Shown: piece by piece, positions 21,296 through 47,269 of the stretch
Layout of the letters: each line of letters begins with the position of its first letter
How positions within the stretch are numbered: the first letter of the stretch is position 1
Source of the DNA: Campylobacterales bacterium
GTDB taxonomy: Bacteria > Campylobacterota > Campylobacteria > Campylobacterales > Sulfurimonadaceae
Length of the DNA: 57,910 bases
Assembly (NCBI GenBank): GCA_026390075.1
Contig: JAPLGP010000004.1
Coordinates: 1-57,910 of the forward strand
Direction of reading: 5' to 3'
The notes under the pieces: model-generated
Told to the model about the DNA's origin: nothing
Seen by the model: the letters and a program-made list of their open reading frames with translations, nothing else
The model's database searches: none
Translations under genes and position numbers: made by a program

Positions 21296-22138
21296 ATGGG
21301 ATTTAGAATAAACACAAATGTTGGTGCGATGAACGCACACATGCAAGCTACAATGAACAATGTTGGACTTGACAAAAGTCTTCAATCTTTAAGCTCAGGT
21401 CTTAGAATTAACAAAGCAGCTGATGATTCAGCAGGTTTGGCAATTGCAAATAAACTCTCAGCTCAGTCTCAAGGTCTAGGTCAAGCAATTAAAAATGCGA
21501 ATGATGGTATTGGTATGATTCAAACTGCAGATGGTGCGATGGCAGAGTATGGTGACATCATGAAAAGAGTTCGTGTTCTTGCTACGCAAGCATCGAATGA
21601 TACTCAAGATGCTACTTCAAGAGGATATATATCTAAAGAAGTTCAATCTCTTTTAGCTGAAGCGAGTGATATTGCAAAAAATACTAAATTTAATGGAACT
21701 GTTCTTTTAGCTGGTGCATCTGGTTCTTTAGGTACTGGTACTTTTGTATTCCATGTTGGCGCTTACAATAATGAAACACAAAGTATTGCTTTTGGCTCAG
21801 CCGATGTAGAAAAACTAGCTGGTCTATCAGCAGGTGGAATTCTTGTAAGTAGTCAAACTGATGCAGAAACAGCGATTACTACAATGGATACAGCAATTAA
21901 AGCAGTCGATGGATTGCGTGCGACAATGGGTGCTGCTCAAAATAAACTAGAAAGTACAATAAGAAATATTTCTGTAACTCAAGTAAATATTACAGCAGCA
22001 GAATCAAACATCAGAGATGTTGACTTTGCAGCAGAGAGTGCAAACTTTTCAAAACACAATATCTTAGCACAATCTGGTTCTTACGCTATGAGCCAAGCGA
22101 ATGCTGTGCAACAGAATGTAATGAGATTGTTACAATAG
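21296..22138 (+). CDS. Flagellin 1
   Basis: Filament protein of 280 residues. The N-terminal D0/D1 (about 1-125, starting MGFRINTNVGAMNAHMQATM) and C-terminal D1/D0 (about 205-280, ending AVQQNVMRLLQ) are intact. The central part is only about 70 residues, so D2/D3 domains are absent, as in other short flagellins. It is nearly identical to flagellins 2 and 3 at both ends and differs mainly at 140-200. It has its own sigma28 promoter, AAGGA ribosome site and terminator. Ser/Thr in the centre are possible glycan sites, given the adjacent legionaminic acid operon (inference). Confidence 0.95.
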   Translation: MGFRINTNVGAMNAHMQATMNNVGLDKSLQSLSSGLRINKAADDSAGLAIANKLSAQSQGLGQAIKNANDGIGMIQTADGAMAEYGDIMKRVRVLATQASNDTQDATSRGYISKEVQSLLAEASDIAKNTKFNGTVLLAGASGSLGTGTFVFHVGAYNNETQSIAFGSADVEKLAGLSAGGILVSSQTDAETAITTMDTAIKAVDGLRATMGAAQNKLESTIRNISVTQVNITAAESNIRDVDFAAESANFSKHNILAQSGSYAMSQANAVQQNVMRLLQ

Positions 22139-22167
22139 TTTTAAGATACGAGATTTTTGATTTCCAC

Positions 22168-22199
22168 ATGCCGAAGAATTTTCCTCTTTGGCATCTTTT
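22168..22199 (+). terminator. Terminator after flagellin 1
   Basis: A ten-base stem ATGCCGAAGA (22168-22177) / TCTTTGGCAT (22185-22194), with one G-T pair and a 7-base loop, followed by CTTTT. Its left arm overlaps a copy of the dispersed word at 22164-22172. Confidence 0.8.
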
Positions 22200-22211
22200 C
22201 GTTACAATAGT

Positions 22212-22238
22212 TAAAGTTATTTTTTTAACTGACGATAT
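22212..22238 (+). promoter_or_regulatory. Sigma28 promoter of flagellin gene 2
   Basis: TAAAGTT at 22212 and GACGATAT at 22231-22238, with the same spacing as for flagellin 1. Confidence 0.8.
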
Positions 22239-22247
22239 AATTGTTAC

Positions 22248-22263
22248 TCAGCAAGGAAGCTGA
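22248..22263 (+). promoter_or_regulatory. CsrA-like hairpin in flagellin 2 leader
   Basis: TCAGC-AAGGAA-GCTGA forms a perfect five-base stem with GGA in the loop, the classic CsrA target form. It lies near the predicted transcript start. A second GGA is in the ribosome site (AAAGGATTTAAAATG). A further AGGGC-GAAAG-GCTCT hairpin is at 22276-22290. Confidence 0.6.
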
Positions 22264-22309
22264 ATAAAATTAACTAGGGCGAAAGGCTCTACCAAAAAAA
22301 GGATTTAAA

Positions 22310-23149
22310 ATGGGATTTAGAATAAACACAAATGTTGGTGCGATGAACGCACACATGCAAGCTACAATGAATAATGTTGGACTTGATAAAAGTCTTCAAT
22401 CTTTAAGCTCTGGTCTTAGAATTAACAAAGCAGCTGATGATTCAGCAGGTTTGGCAATTGCAAATAAACTCTCAGCTCAGTCTCAAGGTTTAGGTCAAGC
22501 AATTAAAAATGCAAATGATGGTATTGGTCTTATCCAAACTGCTGATGGGGCTATGTCAGAGTACGGCGATATCATGAAAAGAATTCGTGTTCTTGCTACC
22601 CAAGCATCGAATGATACTCAAGATGCTACTTCAAGAGGTTATATATCTAATGAGGTTCAGGCTCTTTTAGGTGAAGCAAGTGATATTGTTGCAAATACAA
22701 AATTTAATGGGCAAAATCTTTTAGCGGGTACATCAGGTTCAACAGCTGGTGTATTTATATTCCATGTTGGTGCATACAATAATGAAACACAAAGTATTGA
22801 TTTTAGTTCAGCTAATATTACTGCAATGGCTAGTACTTCAGCTGCTGGACTTCTTGTTACAACACAAAGTAAATCGGAAGATACTATTACTTTTATGGAC
22901 ACAGCAATTAAAGCAGTCGATGGATTGCGTGCGACAATGGGTGCTGCTCAAAACAAACTAGAGAGTACAGTAAGAAATATTTCTGTAACTCAAGTAAATA
23001 TTACAGCAGCAGAATCAAACATCAGAGATGTTGACTTTGCAGCAGAGAGTGCAAACTTTTCAAAACACAATATTTTAGCACAATCTGGCTCTTACGCTAT
23101 GAGCCAAGCGAATGCTGTGCAACAGAATGTTTTAAGACTATTACAATAG
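22310..23149 (+). CDS. Flagellin 2
   Basis: A 279-residue flagellin, almost identical to flagellin 1 over the first ~130 and last ~80 residues, with a different centre (about 140-200, GSTAGVFIFHVGAYNNETQS onward). The near-identity of the ends, including silent positions, suggests recent duplication or gene conversion. It has its own sigma28 promoter, leader hairpins and terminator. Confidence 0.95.
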   Translation: MGFRINTNVGAMNAHMQATMNNVGLDKSLQSLSSGLRINKAADDSAGLAIANKLSAQSQGLGQAIKNANDGIGLIQTADGAMSEYGDIMKRIRVLATQASNDTQDATSRGYISNEVQALLGEASDIVANTKFNGQNLLAGTSGSTAGVFIFHVGAYNNETQSIDFSSANITAMASTSAAGLLVTTQSKSEDTITFMDTAIKAVDGLRATMGAAQNKLESTVRNISVTQVNITAAESNIRDVDFAAESANFSKHNILAQSGSYAMSQANAVQQNVLRLLQ

Positions 23150-23177
23150 TTTTAAAATAAAAAAATTTAATTTCCAC

Positions 23178-23210
23178 ATGCTGAAGAGTTTTGCTCTTTG
23201 GCATTTTTTC
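23178..23210 (+). terminator. Terminator after flagellin 2
   Basis: Stem ATGCTGAAGAG (23178-23188) / CTCTTTGGCAT (23194-23204), with two wobble pairs, followed by TTTTTT. A one-mismatch form of the dispersed word (CCACATGCT) starts at 23174. Confidence 0.8.
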
Positions 23211-23221
23211 GTTATAGTAGT

Positions 23222-23248
23222 TAAAGTTATTTTTTTAACTGACGATAT
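23222..23248 (+). promoter_or_regulatory. Sigma28 promoter of flagellin gene 3
   Basis: TAAAGTT at 23222 and GACGATAT at 23241-23248. The promoter and leader are near-identical to those of flagellin gene 2. Confidence 0.8.
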
Positions 23249-23257
23249 AATTATTAC

Positions 23258-23273
23258 TCAGCAAGGAAGCTGA
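23258..23273 (+). promoter_or_regulatory. CsrA-like hairpin in flagellin 3 leader
   Basis: Same TCAGC-AAGGAA-GCTGA stem-loop as at 22248-22263, with GGA in the loop. Confidence 0.6.
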
Positions 23274-23319
23274 ATAAAATTAACTAGGGCGGAAGGCTCT
23301 ACCAAAAAAAGGATTTAAA

Positions 23320-24189
23320 ATGGGATTTAGAATAAACACAAATGTTGGTGCGATGAACGCACACATGCAAGCTACGATGAACGCACACATGCAAGCTACG
23401 ATGAACAATATTGGGCTTGATAAAAGTCTTCAATCTTTAAGCTCTGGTCTTAGAATTAACAAAGCAGCTGATGATTCAGCAGGTTTGGCAATTGCAAATA
23501 AACTCTCAGCTCAGTCTCAAGGTTTAGGTCAAGCAATTAAAAATGCGAATGATGGTATTGGTCTTATTCAAACTGCGGATGGTGCTATGCAAGAGTACGG
23601 CGATATCATGAAAAGAATTCGTGTTCTTGCTACCCAAGCATCGAATGATACTCAAGATGCTACTTCAAGAGGGTATATATCTAAAGAGATTCAATCTCTT
23701 GCCGCAGAAGCTAGTGATATTGGTGTTAATACTAAATTTAATGGGATTGCTCTTTTAGCTGGTACATCAGGTTCAACAGCTGGTACATTTGTATTTCATG
23801 TTGGTGCGTACAACAATGAAACACAATCTCTTGTTATAGGTTCGGCAGATCTTACTACCTTAGCAGGTGCTTCTGGTACAAGTGCTAGTTTTTCTGTTAG
23901 TACACAAGGGGATGCTGAAGGTACTATAACTACAATGGATACAGCAATTAAAGCAGTTGATGGATTGCGTGCGACAATGGGTGCTGCTCAAAACAAACTA
24001 GAAAGTACAATAAGAAATATTTCTGTAACTCAAGTAAATATTACAGCAGCAGAATCAAACATCAGAGATGTTGACTTTGCAGCAGAGAGTGCAAACTTTT
24101 CAAAACACAACATCTTAGCACAATCTGGTTCTTACGCGATGAGCCAAGCGAATGCTGTGCAACAGAATGTAATGAGATTGTTACAATAG
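23320..24189 (+). CDS. Flagellin 3 (with N-terminal octapeptide duplication)
   Basis: A 289-residue flagellin of the same type. It has an exact in-frame 24-bp tandem duplication at 23352-23399 that repeats NAHMQATM in the D0 helix, so the N-terminal helix gains eight residues. The centre (about 150-215) differs from the paralogs. It has its own sigma28 promoter, CsrA-like leader and terminator. The duplication lies in the region normally strict in length for export and packing, so function may be altered. Confidence 0.94.
   Translation: MGFRINTNVGAMNAHMQATMNAHMQATMNNIGLDKSLQSLSSGLRINKAADDSAGLAIANKLSAQSQGLGQAIKNANDGIGLIQTADGAMQEYGDIMKRIRVLATQASNDTQDATSRGYISKEIQSLAAEASDIGVNTKFNGIALLAGTSGSTAGTFVFHVGAYNNETQSLVIGSADLTTLAGASGTSASFSVSTQGDAEGTITTMDTAIKAVDGLRATMGAAQNKLESTIRNISVTQVNITAAESNIRDVDFAAESANFSKHNILAQSGSYAMSQANAVQQNVMRLLQ
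23352..23399 (+). repeat. 24-bp perfect tandem duplication in flagellin 3
   Basis: Two identical 24-bp units, 23352-23375 and 23376-23399, each starting GATGAACGC. The other three flagellin genes have one copy. Confidence 0.95.
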
Positions 24190-24218
24190 TTTTAAGATGC
24201 AAGATTTTTGATTTTCAC

Positions 24219-24258
24219 ATGCCAAAGAAATTTTCTCTTTGGCATATCTTTATTTTTT
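24219..24258 (+). terminator. Terminator after flagellin 3
   Basis: A perfect ten-base stem ATGCCAAAGA (24219-24228) / TCTTTGGCAT (24236-24245) with a 7-base loop, followed by a T-rich tract. A one-mismatch dispersed word (TCACATGCC) starts at 24215. Confidence 0.85.
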
Positions 24259-24277
24259 CATCTTCATTTTTTTAAAA

Positions 24278-24294
24278 TTGGCATGTTTTTTGCT
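24278..24294 (+). promoter_or_regulatory. Sigma54 (RpoN) promoter of flagellin gene 4
   Basis: TTGGCATGTTTTTTGCT has GG (24280-24281) and GC (24292-24293) at the exact -24/-12 spacing. The other three flagellin genes have sigma28 promoters instead. Confidence 0.82.
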
Positions 24295-24328
24295 ACTACT
24301 CAGGAACTATCCATAGGTAAGGTTTCAA

Positions 24329-25171
24329 ATGGGATTTAGAATAAATACAAATGTTGGTGCGATGAACGCACACATGCAAGCTACGATGAACAATGTTGGA
24401 CTTGACAAAAGTCTTCAATCACTAAGCTCTGGTCTTAGAATTAACAAAGCAGCGGATGATTCAGCAGGTTTGGCAATTGCAAATAAACTTTCAGCTCAGT
24501 CTCAAGGTTTAGGTCAGGCGATTAGAAATGCAAATGATGGTATTGGTCTTATTCAAACCGCTGATGGCGCTATGCAAGAGTATGGAAATATCATGAAAAG
24601 AGTTAGAGTATTGGCTACACAAGCAGCCAATGACACTCAAGATGACACTTCAAGAAGCTATATATCTAAAGAGGTTCAATCCCTCTTAGCTGAAGCAAGT
24701 GATATTGCTGTTACAACTAAATTTAATGGGACGACTCTTTTAACTGGCTCATCTGGTTCCTTAGGTACAGGTACATTTGTATTTCATGTTGGTGCATACA
24801 ACAATGAAACACAAACTATTGCTTTTGGCTCAGGAGATGTAGCAAAACTAGCTGGTCAATCGGCTCCTGCAATTACGGTAGGGACTCAGGTATCAGCAGA
24901 ACTTACTATTGGTTATATGGACACAGCAATTCAAGCTATAGATGGATTGCGTGCGACAATGGGTGCTGCTCAAAATAAACTAGAAAGTACAATAAGAAAT
25001 ATTTCTGTAACCCAAGTAAATATTTCAGCTGCAGAGTCAAACATCAGAGATGTTGACTTTGCAGAAGAGAGTGCAAAATTCTCAAAACACAACATTTTAG
25101 CGCAGTCTGGTTCTTATGCCATGAGTCAAGCGAATGCTGTTCAGCAGAATGTACTAAAATTATTGCAATAA
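24329..25171 (+). CDS. Flagellin 4 (sigma54-controlled)
   Basis: A 280-residue flagellin of the same short type, but the most diverged of the four. It has AIRNAND for AIKNAND, SRSYIS for SRGYIS, and FAEESAKFSKHNI near the C terminus. Its promoter is of the RpoN class, like flaB of Campylobacter, so it is probably made earlier and placed near the hook (inference by analogy). The leader lacks the CsrA-like hairpin of genes 2 and 3. A bidirectional terminator follows. Confidence 0.94.
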   Translation: MGFRINTNVGAMNAHMQATMNNVGLDKSLQSLSSGLRINKAADDSAGLAIANKLSAQSQGLGQAIRNANDGIGLIQTADGAMQEYGNIMKRVRVLATQAANDTQDDTSRSYISKEVQSLLAEASDIAVTTKFNGTTLLTGSSGSLGTGTFVFHVGAYNNETQTIAFGSGDVAKLAGQSAPAITVGTQVSAELTIGYMDTAIQAIDGLRATMGAAQNKLESTIRNISVTQVNISAAESNIRDVDFAEESAKFSKHNILAQSGSYAMSQANAVQQNVLKLLQ

Positions 25172-25181
25172 GTAAATCATG

Positions 25182-25222
25182 GTCTAAAGCTATACTTTTT
25201 TTATAAAAATATAGTCTTAGAC
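25182..25222. terminator. Bidirectional terminator between flagellin 4 and maf
   Basis: Arms at 25182-25194 (GTCTAAAGCTATA) and 25210-25222 pair with a two-base internal mismatch around an A/T-rich loop. It lies between convergent genes and overlaps the maf stop codon. Confidence 0.6.
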
Positions 25223-27232
25223 TCTTTCATTTAAAAACTCTTCTAAACCTTTTATATAAATATCTACAATACTAAACATCTCTTTTTGTACTAATTTATC
25301 AAAGTTTTTGATATGCTTTTTCGCATTCTTCAGATTTTTTGTATTGAAAAAGTCAAGTATTGCGGTAAGTGAATATTTAAAAAATGATAAAAAAACAGCA
25401 GTTAAATTAACAGATTCGTTCTTTTGCTTATGAAGTATATATGAGACTATACCTAATAAGTCATAGAGATATTGCTCTTTATTTGAATATGATATAGTTT
25501 TTGAGTAATTTTCTATTTCTTTATATGTCTCTTTTGCATCCACTAATCTTTGTCTTATAGATGAGATATCCTTGTCACTTAGCTTAGTAATAGAACTCTT
25601 TTTTAGATCTTCTTTTATAGCTATAGAAAGTTGGCTTTTGTCAATATCTTCAAATAAATTTGTATCTATATCTTTTGTATATTTTGGTATTGTCTGCGTG
25701 ATATAAGAACCATCATTAAGATTATAAACTGTTTGATACTCTTTTTTTACAATAGGCATATTTCTATATAATGATTGAACAGAGGCATGCATGATTGCAT
25801 TTGTATATACGGTTTCTCGAAAGTTACCACGAACTTGAAAGAGATTTTTTGTGTTTTCCATAACATTAGATAGCTTGTCTTTATTCTCTGTATCAGCTTG
25901 ATATCCATACATATAATCTGCTGAATGGGATTGCCCTGTTTCTTGGTTGACCGCTAGATTTATCCCCAGTAGATATAGTTCTTTTGCATTTAAAAGCAAA
26001 GATAAAATAAGACTTACTGAACCTATACAAGGGCTTGTTAATGCAGTATAGTTACTTACATATTTTTCCCCCTCATCAAAGTAAAATACCTGTTCTTTTT
26101 TAAACATTTGTCGCACTTTCACAGGAATGTTCGACCCAAATATCATAGCAGCATCACTTAAAAAGCCATCTTCTAGTACATCCTCATAAAACTTTAATGA
26201 GGTTTCTCCACCATCAAGTTGAGTAACGACATCTGGCTTTATGTTATGTTTATGGAGAGTATTTAATATGGTTGAGATGGCTACAATTATAAATTTATGA
26301 TGATTGTTTTTTAGCCACTCTATATTGTCAATAAGTGATGGTCCAGCAGCAAGTACAAGTACTGGCTTATCTTTAAAAACAGAGTTACTAAAGTCACCTC
26401 CAACATTAAGTAAATTATATCCGTCATTCATATACTCTAAAGGTTTCATATATTTGAAGAGTGTTGCCTTATATGGGAAAAAAATGTAAGGTTGTGTAAT
26501 TAAAGCATTTTGTATCTGTTTTATTTTATCTTCCGTGTGAGTCGGAAATTTTACATATTTCATATATCTATTATAAAAAAATTGATTAGCAAGAAATTCA
26601 TTCATTATTTGAATAAAGGCATTTTCATCATCAGCAATTGAAAAGTACAACTTTGCTCTTTGTGCTAATTTGTAATACTCGGTAGTAAATAGTGATAGCT
26701 TGAAGAGTTCCAAATTATCTTCTATGATGATGTACTGTTTTGAAGATATTTTTTCATCAATCATCGAAATATGCATCCCCAAGCCTGTTCCAATAACTAT
26801 AAATTTATCTATGTCTATCATGTTCGTGTGACTATTTGTATTCATTGCATAATACTTCATTATGTGAAGTACACCTTCTACAACTTTAAAATCTTCTGGA
26901 GGGTTGTTAAGAAGTTCATCAGGTATATTATATAAAGGAGCCCCTTCAAAAGTTTGATGGTCTTTGTTAAAATCTACCTTATTTTTTAATTTCTCTGAGA
27001 GTTTATTTGAATCTCCACCATATAAATATTGGTTTGAAGTTAAATTTTTAACATCAAAATAACCATCTTTATACTCCAAATCAAGCGTAGGTATATAATC
27101 TCCGCTGTTTAATGCTTTATCAAACATAGCTAGTAATTTTGCTACATCTTTTTGTTCTTTGTTAAAATATTCCATATTTTTTAGATAAGTTTCGTAGGCT
27201 TTTTCTTCTATCAAATCCTGCATTTTATTCAC
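25217..27232 (-). CDS. maf: Maf-family flagellin glycosyltransferase (motility accessory factor)
   Basis: A 671-residue DUF115/MptE-like protein. The signature VLAAGPSLIDNIEWL (about residue 292) and the following IKPDVVTQLDGGE define the sialyltransferase-like core; Maf proteins move pseudaminic or legionaminic acid from CMP to flagellin Ser/Thr. Flanking N- and C-terminal helical domains are present. It is the last gene of the legionaminic acid operon, 16 bases after ptmA and convergent with the flagellins, which supports this role. Sugar specificity is inferred only from its neighbours. Confidence 0.87.
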   Translation of the reverse strand: MNKMQDLIEEKAYETYLKNMEYFNKEQKDVAKLLAMFDKALNSGDYIPTLDLEYKDGYFDVKNLTSNQYLYGGDSNKLSEKLKNKVDFNKDHQTFEGAPLYNIPDELLNNPPEDFKVVEGVLHIMKYYAMNTNSHTNMIDIDKFIVIGTGLGMHISMIDEKISSKQYIIIEDNLELFKLSLFTTEYYKLAQRAKLYFSIADDENAFIQIMNEFLANQFFYNRYMKYVKFPTHTEDKIKQIQNALITQPYIFFPYKATLFKYMKPLEYMNDGYNLLNVGGDFSNSVFKDKPVLVLAAGPSLIDNIEWLKNNHHKFIIVAISTILNTLHKHNIKPDVVTQLDGGETSLKFYEDVLEDGFLSDAAMIFGSNIPVKVRQMFKKEQVFYFDEGEKYVSNYTALTSPCIGSVSLILSLLLNAKELYLLGINLAVNQETGQSHSADYMYGYQADTENKDKLSNVMENTKNLFQVRGNFRETVYTNAIMHASVQSLYRNMPIVKKEYQTVYNLNDGSYITQTIPKYTKDIDTNLFEDIDKSQLSIAIKEDLKKSSITKLSDKDISSIRQRLVDAKETYKEIENYSKTISYSNKEQYLYDLLGIVSYILHKQKNESVNLTAVFLSFFKYSLTAILDFFNTKNLKNAKKHIKNFDKLVQKEMFSIVDIYIKGLEEFLNERV

Positions 27233-39829: not shown

Positions 39830-41281
39830 ATGTACGAAGATATATATTTTTTAGATTCCAAAGAGGCTCTACGGGTTGCTAGTGAGCAAAATAGATGGGG
39901 CGGTGAGGTTGGTTATAACTTACAAGCTTGTTATTATGATGGTGAAAAAATAGAGAGTGATTTGCCAAATCTTTTTCATTTACCAATAGATACTCTACTC
40001 GAAGGATTAGTTTATGGGAGAGATAGAATTCCATCACAAATAAACTTTGCAGGATTGGACATCTCTTATCAAGTTCAAATACAAATTTTAACTCATTTTA
40101 ATATGACAATGGAACAAGCAAGAGAATATAGAACTCAAATTAATTCACAATATATAAGCCAATTAAAAAATTTAAAGCTGAATTTTAGTGAACCATTAAG
40201 ATTTTATCTCATGGCGAATAGTCAAACGACAGTAATGCAATTCATTTCAAAAAATATAGCAGATATATTCAAAGATATGGAATATGAAGTGTTGTTCGAT
40301 TTATATAGAGGTACAGAAGATGTTACATGTTTTAAAAAAATATATGAGTTCAAACCACATGTAACAATTAATATCAACCACTTAAATAATGGATTTTTGA
40401 GTGAAGATGTTTTTAATTTTGTTTGGTTTCAAGATCCAATGGATCATCTTATGAATGACTCTAAAATGCATCTCAGAGATAGAGATTATATATTTTCATA
40501 TCAAACCATTTTTACTGAAATACTCTTAAAAAAAGGTGTTGATGCAAAAAAAATATTTAAACAGCAAGTATTTCCTATAAATCCAAAAGAGTTTTTTTTA
40601 GATGATACCGAGACAAGAGAAGAAAAAATTGTTTTTGTAGGTAGCTTTTATCCAGCTGATTATGGGGACTATATACCAGATTACATTCACAATGATTTTA
40701 TACTACTAATTGAAAAAGGTCTTTCATTATCAAAAGAACGCATCAGGTCAATTTACAATAATTATAATCTTACTATGCCAGAAGAGTTGAATTTTATAAA
40801 CTATATACAGCAAAGTTACATAAGAAACATGAGTGTAGATTGGTTGAGCCAAAACAAGAAAGAAAAAGTTGAAATATACGGTTATAGATGGGAAAACAGT
40901 AATAACGAACAAGTGATTTCAAAATATAAAGGTAAGGTTGAAAGAGAAAATCTCAATGCTTTATACAATAGTGCCAAGTATGTTTTAGCAGCTTCTGGTC
41001 AAGTTATTAACACCCAAAGATTAGGGGAAATAATTTATAGCGGAGCTATTCCAGTTATATATGATTCTAGAGATATTTCTGATGAAGATGAAACATGGGA
41101 TGATGAATGTCTCTATTTTAAAACCAAAGAAGATCTAGATTATATTTTGGATAACAAGATAGAACCTAAGCAGTATAGAACAAAAAAGATATTGGACTAT
41201 TTTAGTTATGATAGTTTTATAAATACAATTTTAAGTCAGATTGACCAAAAAATCCAAAAAGAGAATACATATGTCAGATAA
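39830..41281 (+). CDS. CgeB-like glycosyltransferase
   Basis: A 483-residue protein with two Rossmann-like halves. The C-terminal half has LYNSAKYVLAASGQVINTQR and IIYSGAIPVIYDSRD, the nucleotide-sugar region of CgeB/GT1-type enzymes. The N-terminal half has VNININHLNNGF-like sequence and FVWFQDPMDHL (the W-x-x-D motif also found in bacterial Maf-like and CgeB proteins). Its likely role is adding a sugar to flagellin or to a surface glycan. It is the first gene of the plus-strand operon and overlaps the radical SAM gene by 11 bases. Confidence 0.68.
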   Translation: MYEDIYFLDSKEALRVASEQNRWGGEVGYNLQACYYDGEKIESDLPNLFHLPIDTLLEGLVYGRDRIPSQINFAGLDISYQVQIQILTHFNMTMEQAREYRTQINSQYISQLKNLKLNFSEPLRFYLMANSQTTVMQFISKNIADIFKDMEYEVLFDLYRGTEDVTCFKKIYEFKPHVTININHLNNGFLSEDVFNFVWFQDPMDHLMNDSKMHLRDRDYIFSYQTIFTEILLKKGVDAKKIFKQQVFPINPKEFFLDDTETREEKIVFVGSFYPADYGDYIPDYIHNDFILLIEKGLSLSKERIRSIYNNYNLTMPEELNFINYIQQSYIRNMSVDWLSQNKKEKVEIYGYRWENSNNEQVISKYKGKVERENLNALYNSAKYVLAASGQVINTQRLGEIIYSGAIPVIYDSRDISDEDETWDDECLYFKTKEDLDYILDNKIEPKQYRTKKILDYFSYDSFINTILSQIDQKIQKENTYVR

Positions 41282-42365
41282 ATTTAACATAGATTCGCAT
41301 AAACTCTCTCTGCATCCAACGCTTGTTTCCAAATGGTATGAAGCCAAAGATGATTGGCAACAACTCAAAGCTATCTATCCTATTTATGTAGAAATATCCC
41401 CTTATGGCGGGTGTAATCATAGGTGTACTTTTTGTGCTTTGGATTATATGGGCTATGAAAATATTGGCTTAGAATTTAATGTTTTAAAAAATACTTTGAC
41501 AAACATGGCAGAACATGGTGTCAAAAGTGTTATGTTTGCGGGAGAAGGCGAACCTTTGCTTTTTAAAGATTTAGACCTCATCGTCGAGCATTGTAGCAGT
41601 GTTGGCATTGACACCTCTTTAACGACTAATTTTGTTCCATTAAACAAAAAAAATATTGAGCGATGTATTGAGAATTGTTCATGGATTAAAGTGAGTTTAA
41701 ATGCAGGAACAGCGAAAAGTTATGCCGAGATTCACCGAACCAAAGAGATAGATTTCAAGCGAGTGATGAATAATCTCAAATATGCTTTGGAATATAGAAA
41801 AGCAAATAATTTGAAATGCACAGTCGGAGTGCAGATGTTACTGCTTCCTGAAAACAAAGATGAAGCAAAAATTTTGGCTTTAGTCTGTAAAGAAATAGGC
41901 GTGGATTATTTGGTAATCAAGCCTTATTCTCAGCATCTTTCAAGTGAGACACACAAATATGAAGATATAGATTACAGCATGATGCTTTATTTAGAAGATG
42001 AGTTAAATGCAATATCTGATGAGAAGTTCAGCGTAGTCTTTCGTGCAAACACGATGAAAAAGTATGTTGAGAAAAAACAACCTTATTCCACATGCCATGC
42101 AACACCATTTTTTTGGGGCTACATCGCAGCCGATGGCAAGGTATTTGGATGTAGTGCCTATCTTGGCAAAGAGGAATTTTGCTATGGAAATATTTATGAG
42201 AACAGTTTTTCAGAAATTTGGGAAAGCGATAAAAGAAAAGCTTCTTACAACTATGTACAAAACGAACTCGATATAAAAAACTGCAGAGTAAATTGCAGAA
42301 TGGATGAAGTCAACCGCTATCTATGGCGACTAAAAAATCCGCAAGAGCATGATAATTTTATATGA
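41271..42365 (+). CDS. Radical SAM/SPASM-domain protein 1
   Basis: A 364-residue radical SAM enzyme with C48-x3-C52-x2-C55 (CNHRCTFC), the GEGEP motif (FAGEGEPLLF) and a C-terminal Cys-rich SPASM-like region (STCHATPFFWGYIAADGKVF ... NCRVNCRMDE) for a second Fe-S cluster. I chose the ATG at 41271, with AGAG upstream; a longer frame begins at 41241. The substrate is unknown, but its place in a glycan operon suggests a sugar or sugar-nucleotide. Two related genes occur at 49618 and 54587. Confidence 0.75.
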   Translation: MSDKFNIDSHKLSLHPTLVSKWYEAKDDWQQLKAIYPIYVEISPYGGCNHRCTFCALDYMGYENIGLEFNVLKNTLTNMAEHGVKSVMFAGEGEPLLFKDLDLIVEHCSSVGIDTSLTTNFVPLNKKNIERCIENCSWIKVSLNAGTAKSYAEIHRTKEIDFKRVMNNLKYALEYRKANNLKCTVGVQMLLLPENKDEAKILALVCKEIGVDYLVIKPYSQHLSSETHKYEDIDYSMMLYLEDELNAISDEKFSVVFRANTMKKYVEKKQPYSTCHATPFFWGYIAADGKVFGCSAYLGKEEFCYGNIYENSFSEIWESDKRKASYNYVQNELDIKNCRVNCRMDEVNRYLWRLKNPQEHDNFI

Positions 42366-42410
42366 GAATAAAAGCAATTGAAAAAAAATTCTCTTCAAAG
42401 GTGTCTGGTA

Positions 42411-45269
42411 ATGAGTAACGATGTTAAGACTAATAAACTATTTTTAAAGCTGAAAACTTTAGAAGATGCCAACCCTAAAATTACTCTTAATATACAAAAT
42501 GAACTTTACAATGTTGTTAAAAAGATACTTGCAAGAATTCCTCAATATATGCCAGAATACACAGCACATGATATTGACCACTGCATAAATATTTTAGATA
42601 TTATAGGCAAGATTTTGCCAGAAAAGATAGAACTAAATATTGTTGAATTACAGATTTTAATATATGCTGTTTTCTTACATGACATTGGAATGGTTGTAAA
42701 TAAAGATGAAGCAGAAAAGTTACAAAAAAGTGAAGAATTTTCAAAAATCACAAGAGAATTTGATAATGAAACAAGTGATGATGAAATTCTCACAGAGTTA
42801 ATAAGAAGAACCCATGTACAAAGAAGCTTAGAATATGTAGATAAATTCAAAAATGATTTTACTGAATATAAAATTGATTTTTCTTTTAACGCGATAGACA
42901 TTGATGAATATGTAAAAAATGTTATAGAAAGTCACGAATTACCTGTTTCTGCATTAACAAATAAAATAAAATATCCAACAGAAACTCAAATAGATTCATA
43001 CACAGCCAATATTCAATTTTTGGCGCTATTGTTAAGACTTGGCGATATACTCGATTTTGACATAACCAGAGCACCACATTTTTTATATAAACATATTGGA
43101 CTTAAAAATAAAATAAGTCAAGAAGAGTGGCAAAAACATCAAGCTATTACGGGACGAACATATTTCCCTTTAGAAGTTAAATTTGTAGCCAAACCTAAAT
43201 CCATTCAGATTCATAGAAAGATTGAAGAGTTTATGGAGTGGATAGAGAGAGAAAGAAAAGAGAGCATAGAATTACTGGCATCTAATCTTAATAGAGAAAA
43301 ATATAATTTAGAACTTACAAAAGAAATTAAAATTGATATTCAACCACAGGGATATGAATATACCAAATTAGAAATAAACTTAGATTATGAAAAAGTTTTG
43401 AATATTTTGATGGGAACTGAGTTGTATGACAATGTAGATGTTTTTTTGCGAGAATTATTACAAAATTCATATGATGCATGTAAATATTATCAAGAGCTTT
43501 ATAATAAAACTAAAGATGATTTAGATAGTGACTATAAACCTAAAATCATTATTAAGTATGATTCAAAAGAAAATATACTTGAAATTATAGATAATGGAAT
43601 CGGAATTGATGAGGATACTTTTAGAGATTATGTCATTACAATAGGTAAAAGTTATTATAAGAGCAAATATTTTGAGATAGAAAACACCCAATTTAAGCCA
43701 ATAAGCAATTTTGGAATAGGTATTTTGTCTTGCTTTATGGTCTCAGATACCATTGAAATAGAATCCTATAAAAAAGATTCAAATCCTATTCATTATGTGA
43801 TGAATATCGGTGATAAATATATTAGCAAATTAACAACTTCTAAGAATAAAAATGGCACAAGAATAAAATTAAAATTGCATGATGATTTTTTTGAAAAATT
43901 GGAAAATAAAAGTATAAAAGATATTATCAATGCGAATATATCTTATCAACCAATTCCTATCTCTTTAAGAGAGAATGAAAAAGAAGAAGTTACTTTCTGT
44001 AAACAGAGTATAGAAGTTCCACAGCAGTATCAATTAATTGATGGTTTTATTACAATAACTTTTGATGAAACTGATGAGCTAGAAGGCTATATAGTAATTC
44101 ATAAACAACAAGGACAACATCAATATCTAGAAGAAAGTAAACTCTCTCAGCAAAATTTTGTCATTACAAATAAAAAAAATCCAATACCATTACAACCGTT
44201 ATGGTTACAAAATATAAAATACAATATTAATATTCCAGATAGCCGTAAACTTCATTTAAAAGCGTCAAGAAATAGCGTGTATGAAGATGCCAATTTACTT
44301 ATTATTAGGGAGAAAATTGCTCAAAAAATTATAGATTATTTTAAACAAAATGAGCATAAGTATCAAAATAATTTTATTCACATGATTGAGTATTTAGGTG
44401 ATGGAAGAGGAAATCTGTTAAGGTTCCAAAGTGAGTACGATTTTTTAATCAATATAAAAATGTTTCAAGTTTTTACTATACAGACACTTGATAATGGACA
44501 AGTTAATATGCAAAGCAAATATCTTAGTTTTCAAGATTTTGTTGATGAGTTAGAATCAAATAAACAGATAAAGATAGCAGTTGTAAAAGATGCTTATTTT
44601 CAAAATCAAACAAATCTCTCTATCTTAATGCCTTATTTTAATGCAAATTATGAATATATTGTTATTGATAATTTTTATAGTATAAATTATTTTTATCAAT
44701 TTATTGAACCAATATGTGAAAAAATTGAAGTGTACACAGCAGATATTGGTGGATTGACTTATCAATCTTTTATAGTAAATAAGAAAGAAAATTTATCTAT
44801 TGATTCATATAAAAAAGATTATTCTTGGACGAATATAAATAAAAATATAGATGAAAAATATTTTGCTGTAATATCAAATAACCATTATAATGGCCTTGAT
44901 ATTACACTAATCAATGGTGCTCATAAACTTGGAAAACTAATGGAGGAACACAAAGATAAATTTTATGTAAAAGGGTTCAAAAACTCAATCATTAATAACT
45001 TTTCAAAAAAATATATTCATAATAAACAACTAGACATATTCATATGGGAAGAAATTGAAAATCATTTTTTCTTTAATACAAATAATTTAGAAGCTTATGC
45101 TGCTAAATTTCAGAGATGTTTTTTGGATACATTTTTAGATTCACTAAATTGTGTTTTAGATGAGAAAATGTTAACCAAATTAGTTAGTGAAAATCTCATA
45201 AAAGAAGAAGAAAAAACAAATTATTTTCTAACTAAATCAGATTTTCCACAATGGTATTTTAAAGTATGA
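42411..45269 (+). CDS. HD-domain plus GHKL (Hsp90-like) ATPase protein
   Basis: A 952-residue protein. Residues about 45-270 carry an HD phosphohydrolase-like domain with TAHDIDHC (H53-D54) and FLHDIGMV (H90-D91). From about 330 there is a GHKL ATPase: N-box ELLQNSYDACK (about 347), G1 EIIDNGIGIDE (about 392) and G2 SNFGIGILSCF (about 432). The C-terminal ~400 residues are not recognised. Similar HD-ATPase proteins exist in bacteria with little known role; a chaperone-like or defence role is speculation. It sits inside a glycan operon with no obvious link to sugars. The start at 42411 is chosen over a TTG at 42378. No exact copy of the dispersed word lies in it. Confidence 0.75.
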   Translation: MSNDVKTNKLFLKLKTLEDANPKITLNIQNELYNVVKKILARIPQYMPEYTAHDIDHCINILDIIGKILPEKIELNIVELQILIYAVFLHDIGMVVNKDEAEKLQKSEEFSKITREFDNETSDDEILTELIRRTHVQRSLEYVDKFKNDFTEYKIDFSFNAIDIDEYVKNVIESHELPVSALTNKIKYPTETQIDSYTANIQFLALLLRLGDILDFDITRAPHFLYKHIGLKNKISQEEWQKHQAITGRTYFPLEVKFVAKPKSIQIHRKIEEFMEWIERERKESIELLASNLNREKYNLELTKEIKIDIQPQGYEYTKLEINLDYEKVLNILMGTELYDNVDVFLRELLQNSYDACKYYQELYNKTKDDLDSDYKPKIIIKYDSKENILEIIDNGIGIDEDTFRDYVITIGKSYYKSKYFEIENTQFKPISNFGIGILSCFMVSDTIEIESYKKDSNPIHYVMNIGDKYISKLTTSKNKNGTRIKLKLHDDFFEKLENKSIKDIINANISYQPIPISLRENEKEEVTFCKQSIEVPQQYQLIDGFITITFDETDELEGYIVIHKQQGQHQYLEESKLSQQNFVITNKKNPIPLQPLWLQNIKYNINIPDSRKLHLKASRNSVYEDANLLIIREKIAQKIIDYFKQNEHKYQNNFIHMIEYLGDGRGNLLRFQSEYDFLINIKMFQVFTIQTLDNGQVNMQSKYLSFQDFVDELESNKQIKIAVVKDAYFQNQTNLSILMPYFNANYEYIVIDNFYSINYFYQFIEPICEKIEVYTADIGGLTYQSFIVNKKENLSIDSYKKDYSWTNINKNIDEKYFAVISNNHYNGLDITLINGAHKLGKLMEEHKDKFYVKGFKNSIINNFSKKYIHNKQLDIFIWEEIENHFFFNTNNLEAYAAKFQRCFLDTFLDSLNCVLDEKMLTKLVSENLIKEEEKTNYFLTKSDFPQWYFKV

Positions 45270-45291
45270 CAAACATAAAAAGAAGTTCAAA

Positions 45292-46296
45292 ATGAGCAAT
45301 ATTCAAAAAAATAGCACTCTATACATCGAAATAAAAACTCTCCTTCAGGATGCTAGAAACAGAGTTTACCAAACAATTAACATCACTATGACCGAGACTT
45401 ATTGGCAGATAGGCAGAAAAATTGTAGAAGAGGAACAAAACGGAAAACAGAGGGCAGAATATGGCAAAGGGCTTATAAAAATTCTTTCAGGTGAGCTAAC
45501 AAAAGAGTTTGGTAAAGGTTTTTCGGTAGATAATTTAGAAAATATGCGAAAGTTTTATGTGACATATTCAAAATCGGAGACAGCGTCTCGGAAATTTGCT
45601 CTTAGTTGGTCACACTATATATTTCTTACAAGAGTAAGCAATGAAAATGAAAGAAACTTTTACGAAATAGAAGCTGTGCAAAACAGTTGGACTTTAAGAG
45701 AACTCAAAAGACAATTTGACACGGGGCTTTTTGAAAGGTTGAAACTGAGCTACGACAAATCAAAAGTACAAGAACTTTCGCAAAAAGGGCAAATCATAGA
45801 ATCTGCCAAAGAGATGATAAAAGACCCCTATATTTTGGAGTTTGTAGGTTTGCCAATATTGAAAAGTTACAGTGAAAGTGAACTAGAACAAAAACTCATA
45901 GATAAACTTGAGCACTTTTTACTAGAGCTTGGTAAGGGTTTTACATTTGTAGCTCGTCAAAAAAGAATCACAATTGATGAAAAACATTTTGCTGTTGATT
46001 TGGTGTTTTACAATCGTTTTTTAAAATGTTTTGTAGTGGTAGATTTAAAAATTGGAGAGCTAAAACATCAAGATATTGGTCAGATGATGATGTATGTAAA
46101 CTATTTTGACAGGGTTGAAAAAACAGACGATGAAAATCAAACTATTGGGATAATTCTTTGCAAGGACAAAAGCAAAGCTCTTGTAGAGATGACTCTTCCA
46201 AAAGAAAATACTCAAATTTTTGCAAGTAAATATTTAACCATACTTCCAAATAAAGAGGAACTGCAAAACCTCTTGGAAGAGGAAATAGATGAATAG
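45292..46296 (+). CDS. DUF1016/YhcG-type PDDEXK nuclease
   Basis: A 334-residue protein. The N-terminal DUF1016_N part (about 12-150) has TETYWQIGRKIVEEEQ, ALSWSHYIFLTRV and SWTLRELKRQ. The C-terminal nuclease domain (about 190-330) has FAVDLVFYNR and CFVVVDLKIG, matching the D ... D-x-K core. YhcG-family proteins are found near restriction-modification and other defence genes. It is 22 bases after the HD-GHKL gene, on the same strand, so the two are probably co-transcribed. Its role is not experimentally clear. Confidence 0.85.
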   Translation: MSNIQKNSTLYIEIKTLLQDARNRVYQTINITMTETYWQIGRKIVEEEQNGKQRAEYGKGLIKILSGELTKEFGKGFSVDNLENMRKFYVTYSKSETASRKFALSWSHYIFLTRVSNENERNFYEIEAVQNSWTLRELKRQFDTGLFERLKLSYDKSKVQELSQKGQIIESAKEMIKDPYILEFVGLPILKSYSESELEQKLIDKLEHFLLELGKGFTFVARQKRITIDEKHFAVDLVFYNRFLKCFVVVDLKIGELKHQDIGQMMMYVNYFDRVEKTDDENQTIGIILCKDKSKALVEMTLPKENTQIFASKYLTILPNKEELQNLLEEEIDE

Positions 46297-46338: not shown

Positions 46339-47269
46339 ATGAAAAAACAAAAAGCAGTAGTTACAGGCGGGGCAGGATTTATTGGCTCACATATGGTGGA
46401 TTTATTGGTTGCGAACGATTATGAAGTGGTGGTTATTGATAACCTTGCAAACGGTCGTTTAGAAAATATAGAACACCACAGAGGTAAAATTGAGTTTTGG
46501 CATGTGGATATTGGCGACTATGAAGTGGATTTAGATGCTTATTTTGAAGATGCGGATTTTGTTTTTCACTACGCTGCACTCGCTGATATCGTACCCTCTA
46601 TAAATAATCCTCTTAAATATCACAAAGCAAATGTAGATGGTACTATCAGAGTTTTAGAAGCTGCTAAAAAATCTAAAAATCTAAAAAAGTTTGTTTATGC
46701 TGCTTCGAGTTCATGTTATGGAAACTGTGGGTGAGCAGTATGTTATGCATTGGGGACAGGTTTATAACATGCCTGTAATTTCCATGCGATTTTTTAATGT
46801 TTATGGAGTGCGACACCGAACTAGTGGAACTTATGGGGCAGTATTTGGTGTCTTTTTGGCACAACTTCTTAACAACAAACCTCTTACTATCGTCGGAGAT
46901 GGCACGCAAACAAGAGATTTTACCTATGTAACTGACATAGTAGATGCGTGTTATAGAGCGAGTCAAAGTGACATTACCCAAGAGATTTTCAATGTTGGAA
47001 GCGATAACACTTATAGCATCAATTATTTGGTCGATTTACTCGGCGGTGAGAGAGTTTATATACCAAAAAGACCAGGTGAACCCGATAGCACTTATGCGGA
47101 TATAAGCAAAATAAGAAAGATGCTCGGGTGGACTCCAAAAGTTAAATTTCCTGATGGCGTGAAAATCATGCTAGAAAATATAGAACAGTGGCGGGAAGCT
47201 CCTATTTGGGATGAAGAGAGCATACAAGAGGCAACCAAAGATTGGTTTGCTTGTTTGGGAGAGAAGTAA
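46339..47269 (+). pseudogene. NAD-dependent sugar epimerase/dehydratase, broken by deletion
   Basis: Two frames of one extended SDR gene. The 5' part (46339-46734) has VTGGAGFIGSHMVDLL and KKFVYAASSSCYG, then runs into a stop. The 3' part, in another frame from about 46715, resumes at VGEQYVMHW, SMRFFNVYG and GDGTQTRDFTYVTD to the natural end at 47269. The segment between SSSCYG and GEQ, some 23-28 residues that should contain the catalytic Tyr of YxxxK, is missing. So this is a deletion plus frameshift, not a sequencing slip of one base. The enzyme should be inactive. The neighbouring genes look intact. Confidence 0.85.

What the first reader, a model, noticed from the sequence alone, without database searches (positions are those of the whole stretch)
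42411..46296. HD-GHKL ATPase plus DUF1016 nuclease pair inside a glycan operon: possible defence cargo
A 952-aa protein joins an HD phosphohydrolase-like domain to an Hsp90-like ATPase and an unknown C-terminal half, and a PDDEXK nuclease of the YhcG type follows 22 bases later. Neither fits sugar synthesis. Glycan loci are exchange hot spots. Sensor ATPase plus HD plus nuclease is a design seen in anti-phage systems, but this pair is not one I recognise. No exact copy of the dispersed word falls in these 3.9 kb (weak evidence for recent arrival).
Basis: inference. Interest (0 to 1): 0.74.

Follow-up and report, generated by a model that had tools for sequence, protein, structure and literature searches.

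The report
HD-Hsp90 gene beside a wandering nuclease
Two unrelated passenger genes sit inside a sugar-coat operon: a rare enzyme-chaperone fusion (an HD phosphohydrolase joined to an Hsp90-like machine) that in other microbes sometimes lies beside anti-virus genes, and a common nuclease gene that turns up in many operons of this genus; they are neighbours here but probably not a matched pair.

Summary
The 952-aa protein (42411-45269) is an HD-CE domain (PF24391) fused to an Hsp90-type ATPase; its 'unknown C-terminal half' begins with an Hsp90 middle domain (hhalign E=1.6e-27). HD and ATPase residues are invariant in 49 of 49 aligned members. A YhcG/DUF1016 PD-(D/E)XK nuclease follows 22 bases later. 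No YhcG was found around 91 other HD-Hsp90 ORFs (66 with at least 2 kb on both sides). Eight same-genus genomes show the empty site (radical-SAM directly followed by epimerase); one has a core-deleted YhcG there and no HD gene. YhcG is a recurrent operon passenger in this genus (49 of 130 genomes; about 90%-identical copies at different sites). HD-Hsp90 is patchy (7 of 397 phylum genomes), AT-rich here, and occurs in bacteria and archaea. Nearest-neighbour genes are enriched for defence families (at least 10 of 71 versus 2 of 68 distant genes; Fisher p=0.03). Best reading: a stand-alone, horizontally moving, probably defensive protein in which an Hsp90 clamp controls a phosphodiesterase-like HD enzyme, parked beside an independently inserted nuclease. 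Function is untested; no paper on the fusion was found.

The parts
42411..45269 (+). HD-Hsp90 fusion protein, 952 aa (ATG start; an in-frame TTG lies at 42378)
42549..43253 (+). HD-CE domain (residues 47-281): H53, H57, H90, D91, H135, H175, D212 invariant in 49 of 49 aligned members; fold closest to class I cyclic-nucleotide phosphodiesterases, weakly
43407..43988 (+). Hsp90-type GHKL ATPase domain (residues 333-526): E348, N352, D355, D394, G396, G398, G435, G437 invariant
43989..44678 (+). Hsp90 middle-domain-like region (residues 527-756); SRN at 619-621 aligns with the SRE loop of HtpG
   Evidence: hhalign E=1.6e-27; low model confidence here
44679..45266 (+). C-terminal region (residues 757-952), mainly helical from about 839; possible dimerisation part, unassigned
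   Evidence: inference
45292..46296 (+). YhcG/DUF1016 PD-(D/E)XK nuclease, 334 aa (PADLOC candidate family PDC-S02)
   Evidence: D236 and D251-x-K253 present
41241..42365 (+). radical-SAM/SPASM gene: left edge of the insertion site
46339..47269 (+). NAD-dependent epimerase gene: right edge of the site; frame broken by about 68 missing bases relative to same-genus relatives

Best explanation
Two independent passengers share one slot of a flagellin/surface-glycan operon. (1) A YhcG nuclease gene entered between the radical-SAM and epimerase genes in an ancestor shared with one sister species (shown: shared junctions; empty in eight others). (2) An HD-Hsp90 gene sits between the radical-SAM gene and YhcG, in this genome alone of those compared (shown); it probably came later by horizontal transfer (inferred; loss in the sister is not excluded). 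HD-Hsp90 is a single-gene, patchily spread family that tends to lie beside defence genes (shown, moderate statistics). Proposed mechanism (inferred): the Hsp90 half works as an ATP-driven dimeric clamp that recognises a client, such as a phage protein or a stressed host protein; closure of the clamp switches on the N-terminal HD phosphohydrolase, whose fold and ligand pattern resemble cyclic-nucleotide phosphodiesterases, so that it hydrolyses a nucleotide or nucleic acid and halts the cell or the phage. YhcG is not needed for this.
For: Architecture and invariant residues of both enzymes. No YhcG near 91 other HD-Hsp90 ORFs. Empty and partly filled sites. Patchy: HD-CE in 8 of 397 phylum genomes, own genome included, 7 of them with the Hsp90-type ATPase; only the window's own genome of the 199 searched matched over the whole length. 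Relatives in Bacillota, Bacteroidota, Elusimicrobiota and two archaeal records, on three plasmids (one over 96% of the query, two over the HD-ATPase part) and on 5 IMG/VR contigs at E<=1e-3, one of them weak. Nearest-neighbour genes: at least 10 of 71 match PADLOC at E<=1e-50 (Old twice, CBASS cyclase, reverse transcriptase, PifA, DpdF, four PDC families) against 2 of 68 distant genes in the same loci, p=0.031. HD fold nearest to PDEs. YhcG at many sites.
Against: The closest relative (L035, about 52% identical by BLAST) lies among ordinary-looking genes such as a glyoxalase. The enrichment is modest, not corrected for phylogeny, and compares genes inside the same 9-kb flanks. Foldseek E for the PDE match is only 0.05, and Z 12.9 can be a common helical arrangement. 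No client, substrate or phage phenotype is known. Loss of the HD gene in the sister genome is not excluded.
Confidence: 0.58

Rival explanations
1. The two genes form one two-gene defence system: HD-Hsp90 senses and licenses the YhcG nuclease.
For: Same strand, 22-base gap; a GHKL ATPase proposed to control a PD-(D/E)XK nuclease is known in one polypeptide, VcSduA (PMC12137116, passages read).
Against: No co-occurrence in 91 relatives; YhcG alone at the same site in a sister genome; YhcG next to many other genes in the genus.
Confidence: 0.07
2. HD-Hsp90 is a module with exchangeable downstream effectors: an ART-like protein in three Campylobacterota loci, an unknown 347-aa protein in Sulfuricurvum, recruited YhcG here.
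For: ART-like genes of about 200 aa beside the HD gene in L024, L036, L039; a 347-aa gene 2 bases after the HD gene in L041.
Against: ART match below Pfam's cut-off and in only two of the three; in L039 the gene is divergent, on the opposite strand; among the three nearest genes on each side of the relatives no family recurs in more than five proteins; the 347-aa gene has no Pfam match.
Confidence: 0.13
3. HD-Hsp90 is a stress chaperone or nucleotide-signal regulator unrelated to phage, e.g. tuning a cyclic nucleotide.
For: Real Hsp90 N and M domains; PDE-like HD fold; ordinary neighbours at L035.
Against: Very patchy, present on mobile DNA, enriched near defence genes.
Confidence: 0.2
4. The YhcG gene is itself a self-moving (homing-like) element that inserts between co-transcribed genes and seeds small defence clusters.
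For: About 90% identical copies at different sites; 25 of 27 copies co-directional with both neighbouring ORFs and 22 of 27 within 30 bases of one; a surE/thiF-like operon entered inside (L196) and directly downstream (L186, L197); AAA genes added beside YhcG at the L180 site but not at L181.
Against: No target duplication or recognition sequence sought or shown; operon-dense genomes make tight spacing common and my ORF starts are the most upstream ones, which overstates overlaps; ordinary recombination plus the need for a promoter may suffice.
Confidence: 0.15

Closest known systems
HtpG / Hsp90 chaperones (and NCBIfam PRK14083 'HSP90 family protein')
   Same: GHKL ATP-binding motifs; middle domain with the Arg loop; alignment over 393 columns
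   Different: N-terminal HD domain; far below the HtpG curated cut-off (125 versus 371 bits); rare; the genome has a separate HtpG-like gene
Pfam HD-CE (PF24391) proteins
   Same: domain well over the cut-off (166 versus 27 bits)
   Different: HD-CE also occurs without Hsp90, e.g. L040 next to a DNA methyltransferase-like (by eye) and an ORC-CDC6-like gene; I found no paper describing the domain
VcSduA, a Shedu protein with a GHKL ATPase domain (PMC12137116; passages read)
   Same: GHKL clamp proposed to control a catalytic domain in phage defence
   Different: effector is a C-terminal DUF4263 nuclease there, an N-terminal HD here
YhcG/COG4804 PD-(D/E)XK family (PMC1189080, passages read; PMC4316617, passages)
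   Same: same domains; one type I R-M association noted; in a Rickettsia element a DUF1016 gene lies between traU and traW, another operon-inside position
   Different: here inside a glycan operon, beside an HD-Hsp90 gene
Class I cyclic-nucleotide phosphodiesterases
   Same: best fold matches, Z 12.9 over 235 residues; H-x3-H ... HD ... D spacing (PDE motif recalled)
   Different: 9-15% identity in the rows shown, Foldseek E 0.05; substrate unknown

Membership tests
Hsp90 (superfamily) | N-box ExxxNxxDA and DxGxG ATP-binding motifs | tested here: met
   E348, N352, D355, D394, G396, G398 identical in 49 of 49
Hsp90 (superfamily) | middle domain with catalytic Arg loop | tested here: met
   hhalign E=1.6e-27; SRN 619-621 on HtpG SRE; sequence only, model poor there
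Hsp90 (superfamily) | C-terminal dimerisation domain | tested here: inconclusive
   helical tail, not aligned beyond residue 756
HtpG (equivalog) | NCBIfam curated cut-off | tested here: not met
   125 versus 371 bits
HD-CE PF24391 | curated cut-off | tested here: met
   166 versus 27 bits
Class I PDE | catalytic-domain fold | tested here: inconclusive
   best Z 12.9, Foldseek E 0.05
Class I PDE | hydrolysis of a cyclic nucleotide | not testable with these tools
   -
YhcG / PDC-S02 nuclease | DUF1016_N plus YhcG_C over cut-offs | tested here: met
   PDC-S02 E=2.1e-142
YhcG / PDC-S02 nuclease | PD-(D/E)XK residues | tested here: met
   D236, D251-x-K253, also in L179 and L181
A two-gene HD-Hsp90+YhcG defence system | conserved linkage | tested here: not met
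   0 of 93 loci (91 with an HD-Hsp90 ORF)
Known PADLOC defence system (for the HD-Hsp90 protein) | strong whole-protein match to a PADLOC model | tested here: not met
   only REase_II E=6.3e-6 over the GHKL part
Shedu (VcSduA type) | DUF4263 nuclease domain | tested here: not met
   not among the Pfam matches of either protein at E<=0.01
Anti-phage defence | protection from phage | not testable with these tools
   -

The most novel reading that the evidence does not exclude
HD-Hsp90 is an undescribed single-protein immune sensor-effector found in bacteria and archaea: a true Hsp90 clamp turned from chaperone into a client-triggered switch, whose closure turns on a fused phosphodiesterase-like HD enzyme that destroys a nucleotide pool or second messenger during phage infection.
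Probability: 0.33. Interest if true: 0.8.

Novelty: new variant of a known kind. Interest (0 to 1): 0.55.

Why it matters
Hsp90 is among the best-known chaperones. A widespread, mobile bacterial form wired directly to a phosphohydrolase and lying beside defence genes would make protein-folding state a direct trigger of immunity. It would add a GHKL-clamp effector unlike Shedu, and it can be tested with one gene. The YhcG result also warns against reading adjacency as a system: in this genus the nuclease sits next to many different genes.

Tried and rejected
Rejected: HD-Hsp90+YhcG as a conserved pair (one search was a failed script, its repeat). The 91 loci are not all distinct: L104 repeats L038 and L121 repeats L044 by their neighbours, and several contigs end inside or just after the gene. 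Rejected: an HtpG paralogue. Rejected: full-length relatives among the sampled relatives; the other 21 matching genomes of 199 matched in the ATPase part only, as HtpG does. First viral scan with the single protein found nothing; with the alignment it found 5. Phage-collection hits covered only the ATPase part and a little beyond. No solved relative of YhcG. The full-length model is poor at residues 556-830, so the middle domain rests on sequence. The HD search named PDEs and, lower, exopolyphosphatases and dNTPase-like HD proteins; families not listed are not excluded.

The PADLOC near/far numbers are my reading of distinct family names, not a tool's count of proteins. Near: 25 of 43 families were displayed, so 10 is a minimum; seven of the ten were seen protein by protein. 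Far: 6 families, five of them PDC-S06 with the same score pattern as the single protein L065, hence counted as one protein; in the worst case the far count is 6 and the difference would not be significant. At E<=1e-10 the family lists were 186 near and 53 far. One search used ten hand-picked neighbours, 9 of which matched at E<=1e-75, so it is not a rate. A5 and A6 drew on 40 of the 80 genome loci (long flanks only); the script's near list of 77 held five duplicates and one HD-gene fragment that I dropped, leaving 71.

The 49-row alignment took 48 of the 80 genome loci by a length filter (780-1010 aa, not cut by a contig end, no N); L042, the third closest, fell out and was used only. The 20 extra YhcG regions were the best-scoring copies with room around them plus the two other copies of this genome, not a random draw. 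Of the 17 other genomes with the radical-SAM gene, 12 were fetched and 5 were not. Papers: searches for HD-CE, Hsp90 plus HD plus conflict or defence, and DUF1016/YhcG found no description of the HD-Hsp90 fusion; the library is open-licence PMC only and I read passages, no whole text. Passages in PMC3710099, PMC11090510 and PMC11341870 did not bear on it.
Full report
What is there. The two ORFs are as described: 42411-45269 (952 aa from ATG; TTG at 42378 possible) and 45292-46296 (334 aa), same strand, 22 bases apart, inside a surface-glycan operon with Maf-like, SIS, Polysacc_synt_2, radical-SAM/SPASM and epimerase genes. Pfam gives HD-CE (PF24391) and HATPase_c_3 for the first, DUF1016_N and YhcG_C for the second, all over cut-off. 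PADLOC calls the second PDC-S02, a candidate defence family, and has no good model for the first.

The 952-aa protein is an HD-Hsp90 fusion. A profile of five close HD proteins against 22 HtpG-like proteins aligns residues 333-756 with HtpG 16-469 at E=1.6e-27, and SRN 619-621 falls on the HtpG SRE loop that carries the catalytic Arg (role of that Arg recalled). The AlphaFold model (mean pLDDT 70.5) is good for the HD and ATPase parts, poor for 556-830; Foldseek's best matches are TRAP1 and other Hsp90s. In 49 aligned proteins (the window's and 48 relatives) all HD-type residues (53, 57, 90, 91, 135, 175, 212) and the N-box and DxGxG residues are identical in 49 of 49, which argues that both enzymes work. 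The HD part alone (pLDDT 86) is closest to class I cyclic-nucleotide phosphodiesterases: they lead both lists (Foldseek E 0.05; Z 12.9 over 235 residues). The tool warns that helical models can reach such Z without kinship, so this is a lead. The H-x3-H spacing (H53, H57) plus HD plus D resembles the PDE signature as I recall it.

Distribution. The HD-CE domain occurs in 8 of 397 sampled phylum genomes, the window's own included; in one of the eight (G404, L040) it stands without Hsp90. In 199 genomes searched with the whole protein, 22 matched but only the window's own over the full length; the others matched in the ATPase part only, as HtpG does. One genome-collection scan gave 161 relatives, 80 kept. 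The tree groups the window protein with a same-order genome (60% identical over 533 columns), Sulfuricurvum, an Endomicrobiaceae bin and an Aliarcobacter plasmid gene; other clades hold Bacillota, Bacteroidota and a Methanomicrobiales bin; a second archaeal record is (L117). Three plasmids carry the HD-ATPase part, one of them 96% of the protein but with a broken frame. Five IMG/VR contigs encode relatives, one weakly, and one is the same stretch as genome locus L044. The HD gene is the most AT-rich of the eight genes computed (GC 25.8%, GC3 17.6%).

Is it a pair? A profile of 28 YhcG proteins finds none in 93 loci of relatives, of which 91 hold an ORF matching HD-Hsp90 and 66 have at least 2 kb on both sides (same with the single YhcG). 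At least two of the 91 are repeats of others. So there is no sign of linkage.

The insertion site. Eighteen of 130 same-genus genomes, own included, have a match to the radical-SAM protein. I fetched the region in 12 of the 17 others. In 8 (G086, G426, G099, G056, G011, G008, G074, G052) radical-SAM is followed directly by the epimerase: the empty site. In G092 the slot holds a YhcG (84.7% and 89.9% identical over its two retained parts) and no HD gene. In 3 (G524, G002, G061) the order differs. Window and G092 share the TGA stop of radical-SAM, where the other eight have TAA, and a similar YhcG-epimerase spacer and epimerase start, so YhcG most simply entered once in their ancestor. The HD gene was added in the window lineage, or lost in G092. 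The G092 YhcG lacks the stretch with the nuclease residues, in frame, so it has lost that activity or is decaying.

YhcG in this genus. Forty-nine of 130 genomes, own included, carry hits at E<=1e-20. Of 27 copies examined with flanks (chosen by score and room, not at random), 25 are co-directional with both neighbouring ORFs and 22 lie within 30 bases of at least one. The three closest copies lie beside a type I specificity gene (G021) or before a 470-aa gene that follows a WD40-caspase-like gene (G018, G023), with AAA genes added in G023 only. Copies about 90% identical (L186, L187, L188, L191) lie at three different sites, L187 and L188 sharing one. In one genome (L196) YhcG splits the surE-like and thiF-like genes that are adjacent in L186 and L197, where another YhcG lies further down (gene names from sequence by eye). 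Published notes fit: YhcG as a predicted nuclease once seen with type I R-M (PMC1189080, passages), and a DUF1016 gene between traU and traW of a Rickettsia element (PMC4316617, passages).

Defence association of HD-Hsp90. In 40 long-flank loci, nearest genes matched PADLOC at E<=1e-50 in at least 10 of 71 cases (Old twice, PDC-M38A, PDC-S06, PDC-S46, CBASS cyclase, PDC-M01A, a reverse transcriptase, DpdF, PifA), the farthest genes in 2 of 68 (PDC-S06, bSEFIR); Fisher p=0.031. These are counts by family name, not phylogeny-corrected; the worst case is given under Tried and rejected. Nine of ten hand-picked neighbours matched PifA, Old, PDC or Borvo-type models strongly. Against this, the nearest relative (L035) lies among ordinary genes.

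Mechanism. Shown: domain make-up, intact motifs, patchy and mobile distribution, no fixed partner found. Inferred: an ATP-driven clamp senses a client and gates the HD enzyme. The nearest tested precedent is VcSduA, where a GHKL ATPase is proposed to control a nuclease (PMC12137116, passages). I put a defence role at roughly 0.55 and this gating step at 0.4.

Verdict. A good observation with a wrong link: two independent passengers. The HD-Hsp90 family deserves attention by itself; the nuclease next door most likely does not belong to it.

Noticed in passing
L168, L179-L202 (same-genus genomes) and window 45292-46296: YhcG genes behave as operon passengers: about 90% identical copies at different sites, copies inside other glycan operons (L198, L199, by eye) and inside or just after a surE/thiF-like operon.
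   Followed up: partly
window 46339-47269: The epimerase gene after YhcG is split into two frames; about 68 bases present in same-genus relatives are missing. Decay or assembly error.
   Followed up: partly
L024:10747-11340, L036:10703-11299, L039:7257-7865: A family of about 200-aa proteins beside HD-Hsp90 in three Campylobacterota loci; sub-threshold Pfam ART match in two of the three; rare (4 of 298 phylum genomes by profile, one of them L039's own genome).
   Followed up: partly
L040:5994-10634: Four-gene row: DNA-methyltransferase-like ORF (by eye), HD-CE, ORC-CDC6-like ATPase (PF24389), and a protein with a weak HFX_2341-like match; a different HD-CE context.
   Followed up: no
L041:11865-12905: 347-aa protein of unknown family starting 2 bases after the HD-Hsp90 gene of a Sulfuricurvum bin; matches in 2 of 200 phylum genomes, one a short piece at a contig end.
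   Followed up: partly
L180 and L181: WD40-caspase-like gene followed by YhcG and a 470-aa gene; one genome has AAA_21 ATPase genes inserted before YhcG at the same site.
   Followed up: no
window 21296-25171: Four ORFs of 279-289 aa in a row on the + strand next to a Maf-type gene (25217-27232); probably flagellin copies, identity not checked.
   Followed up: no
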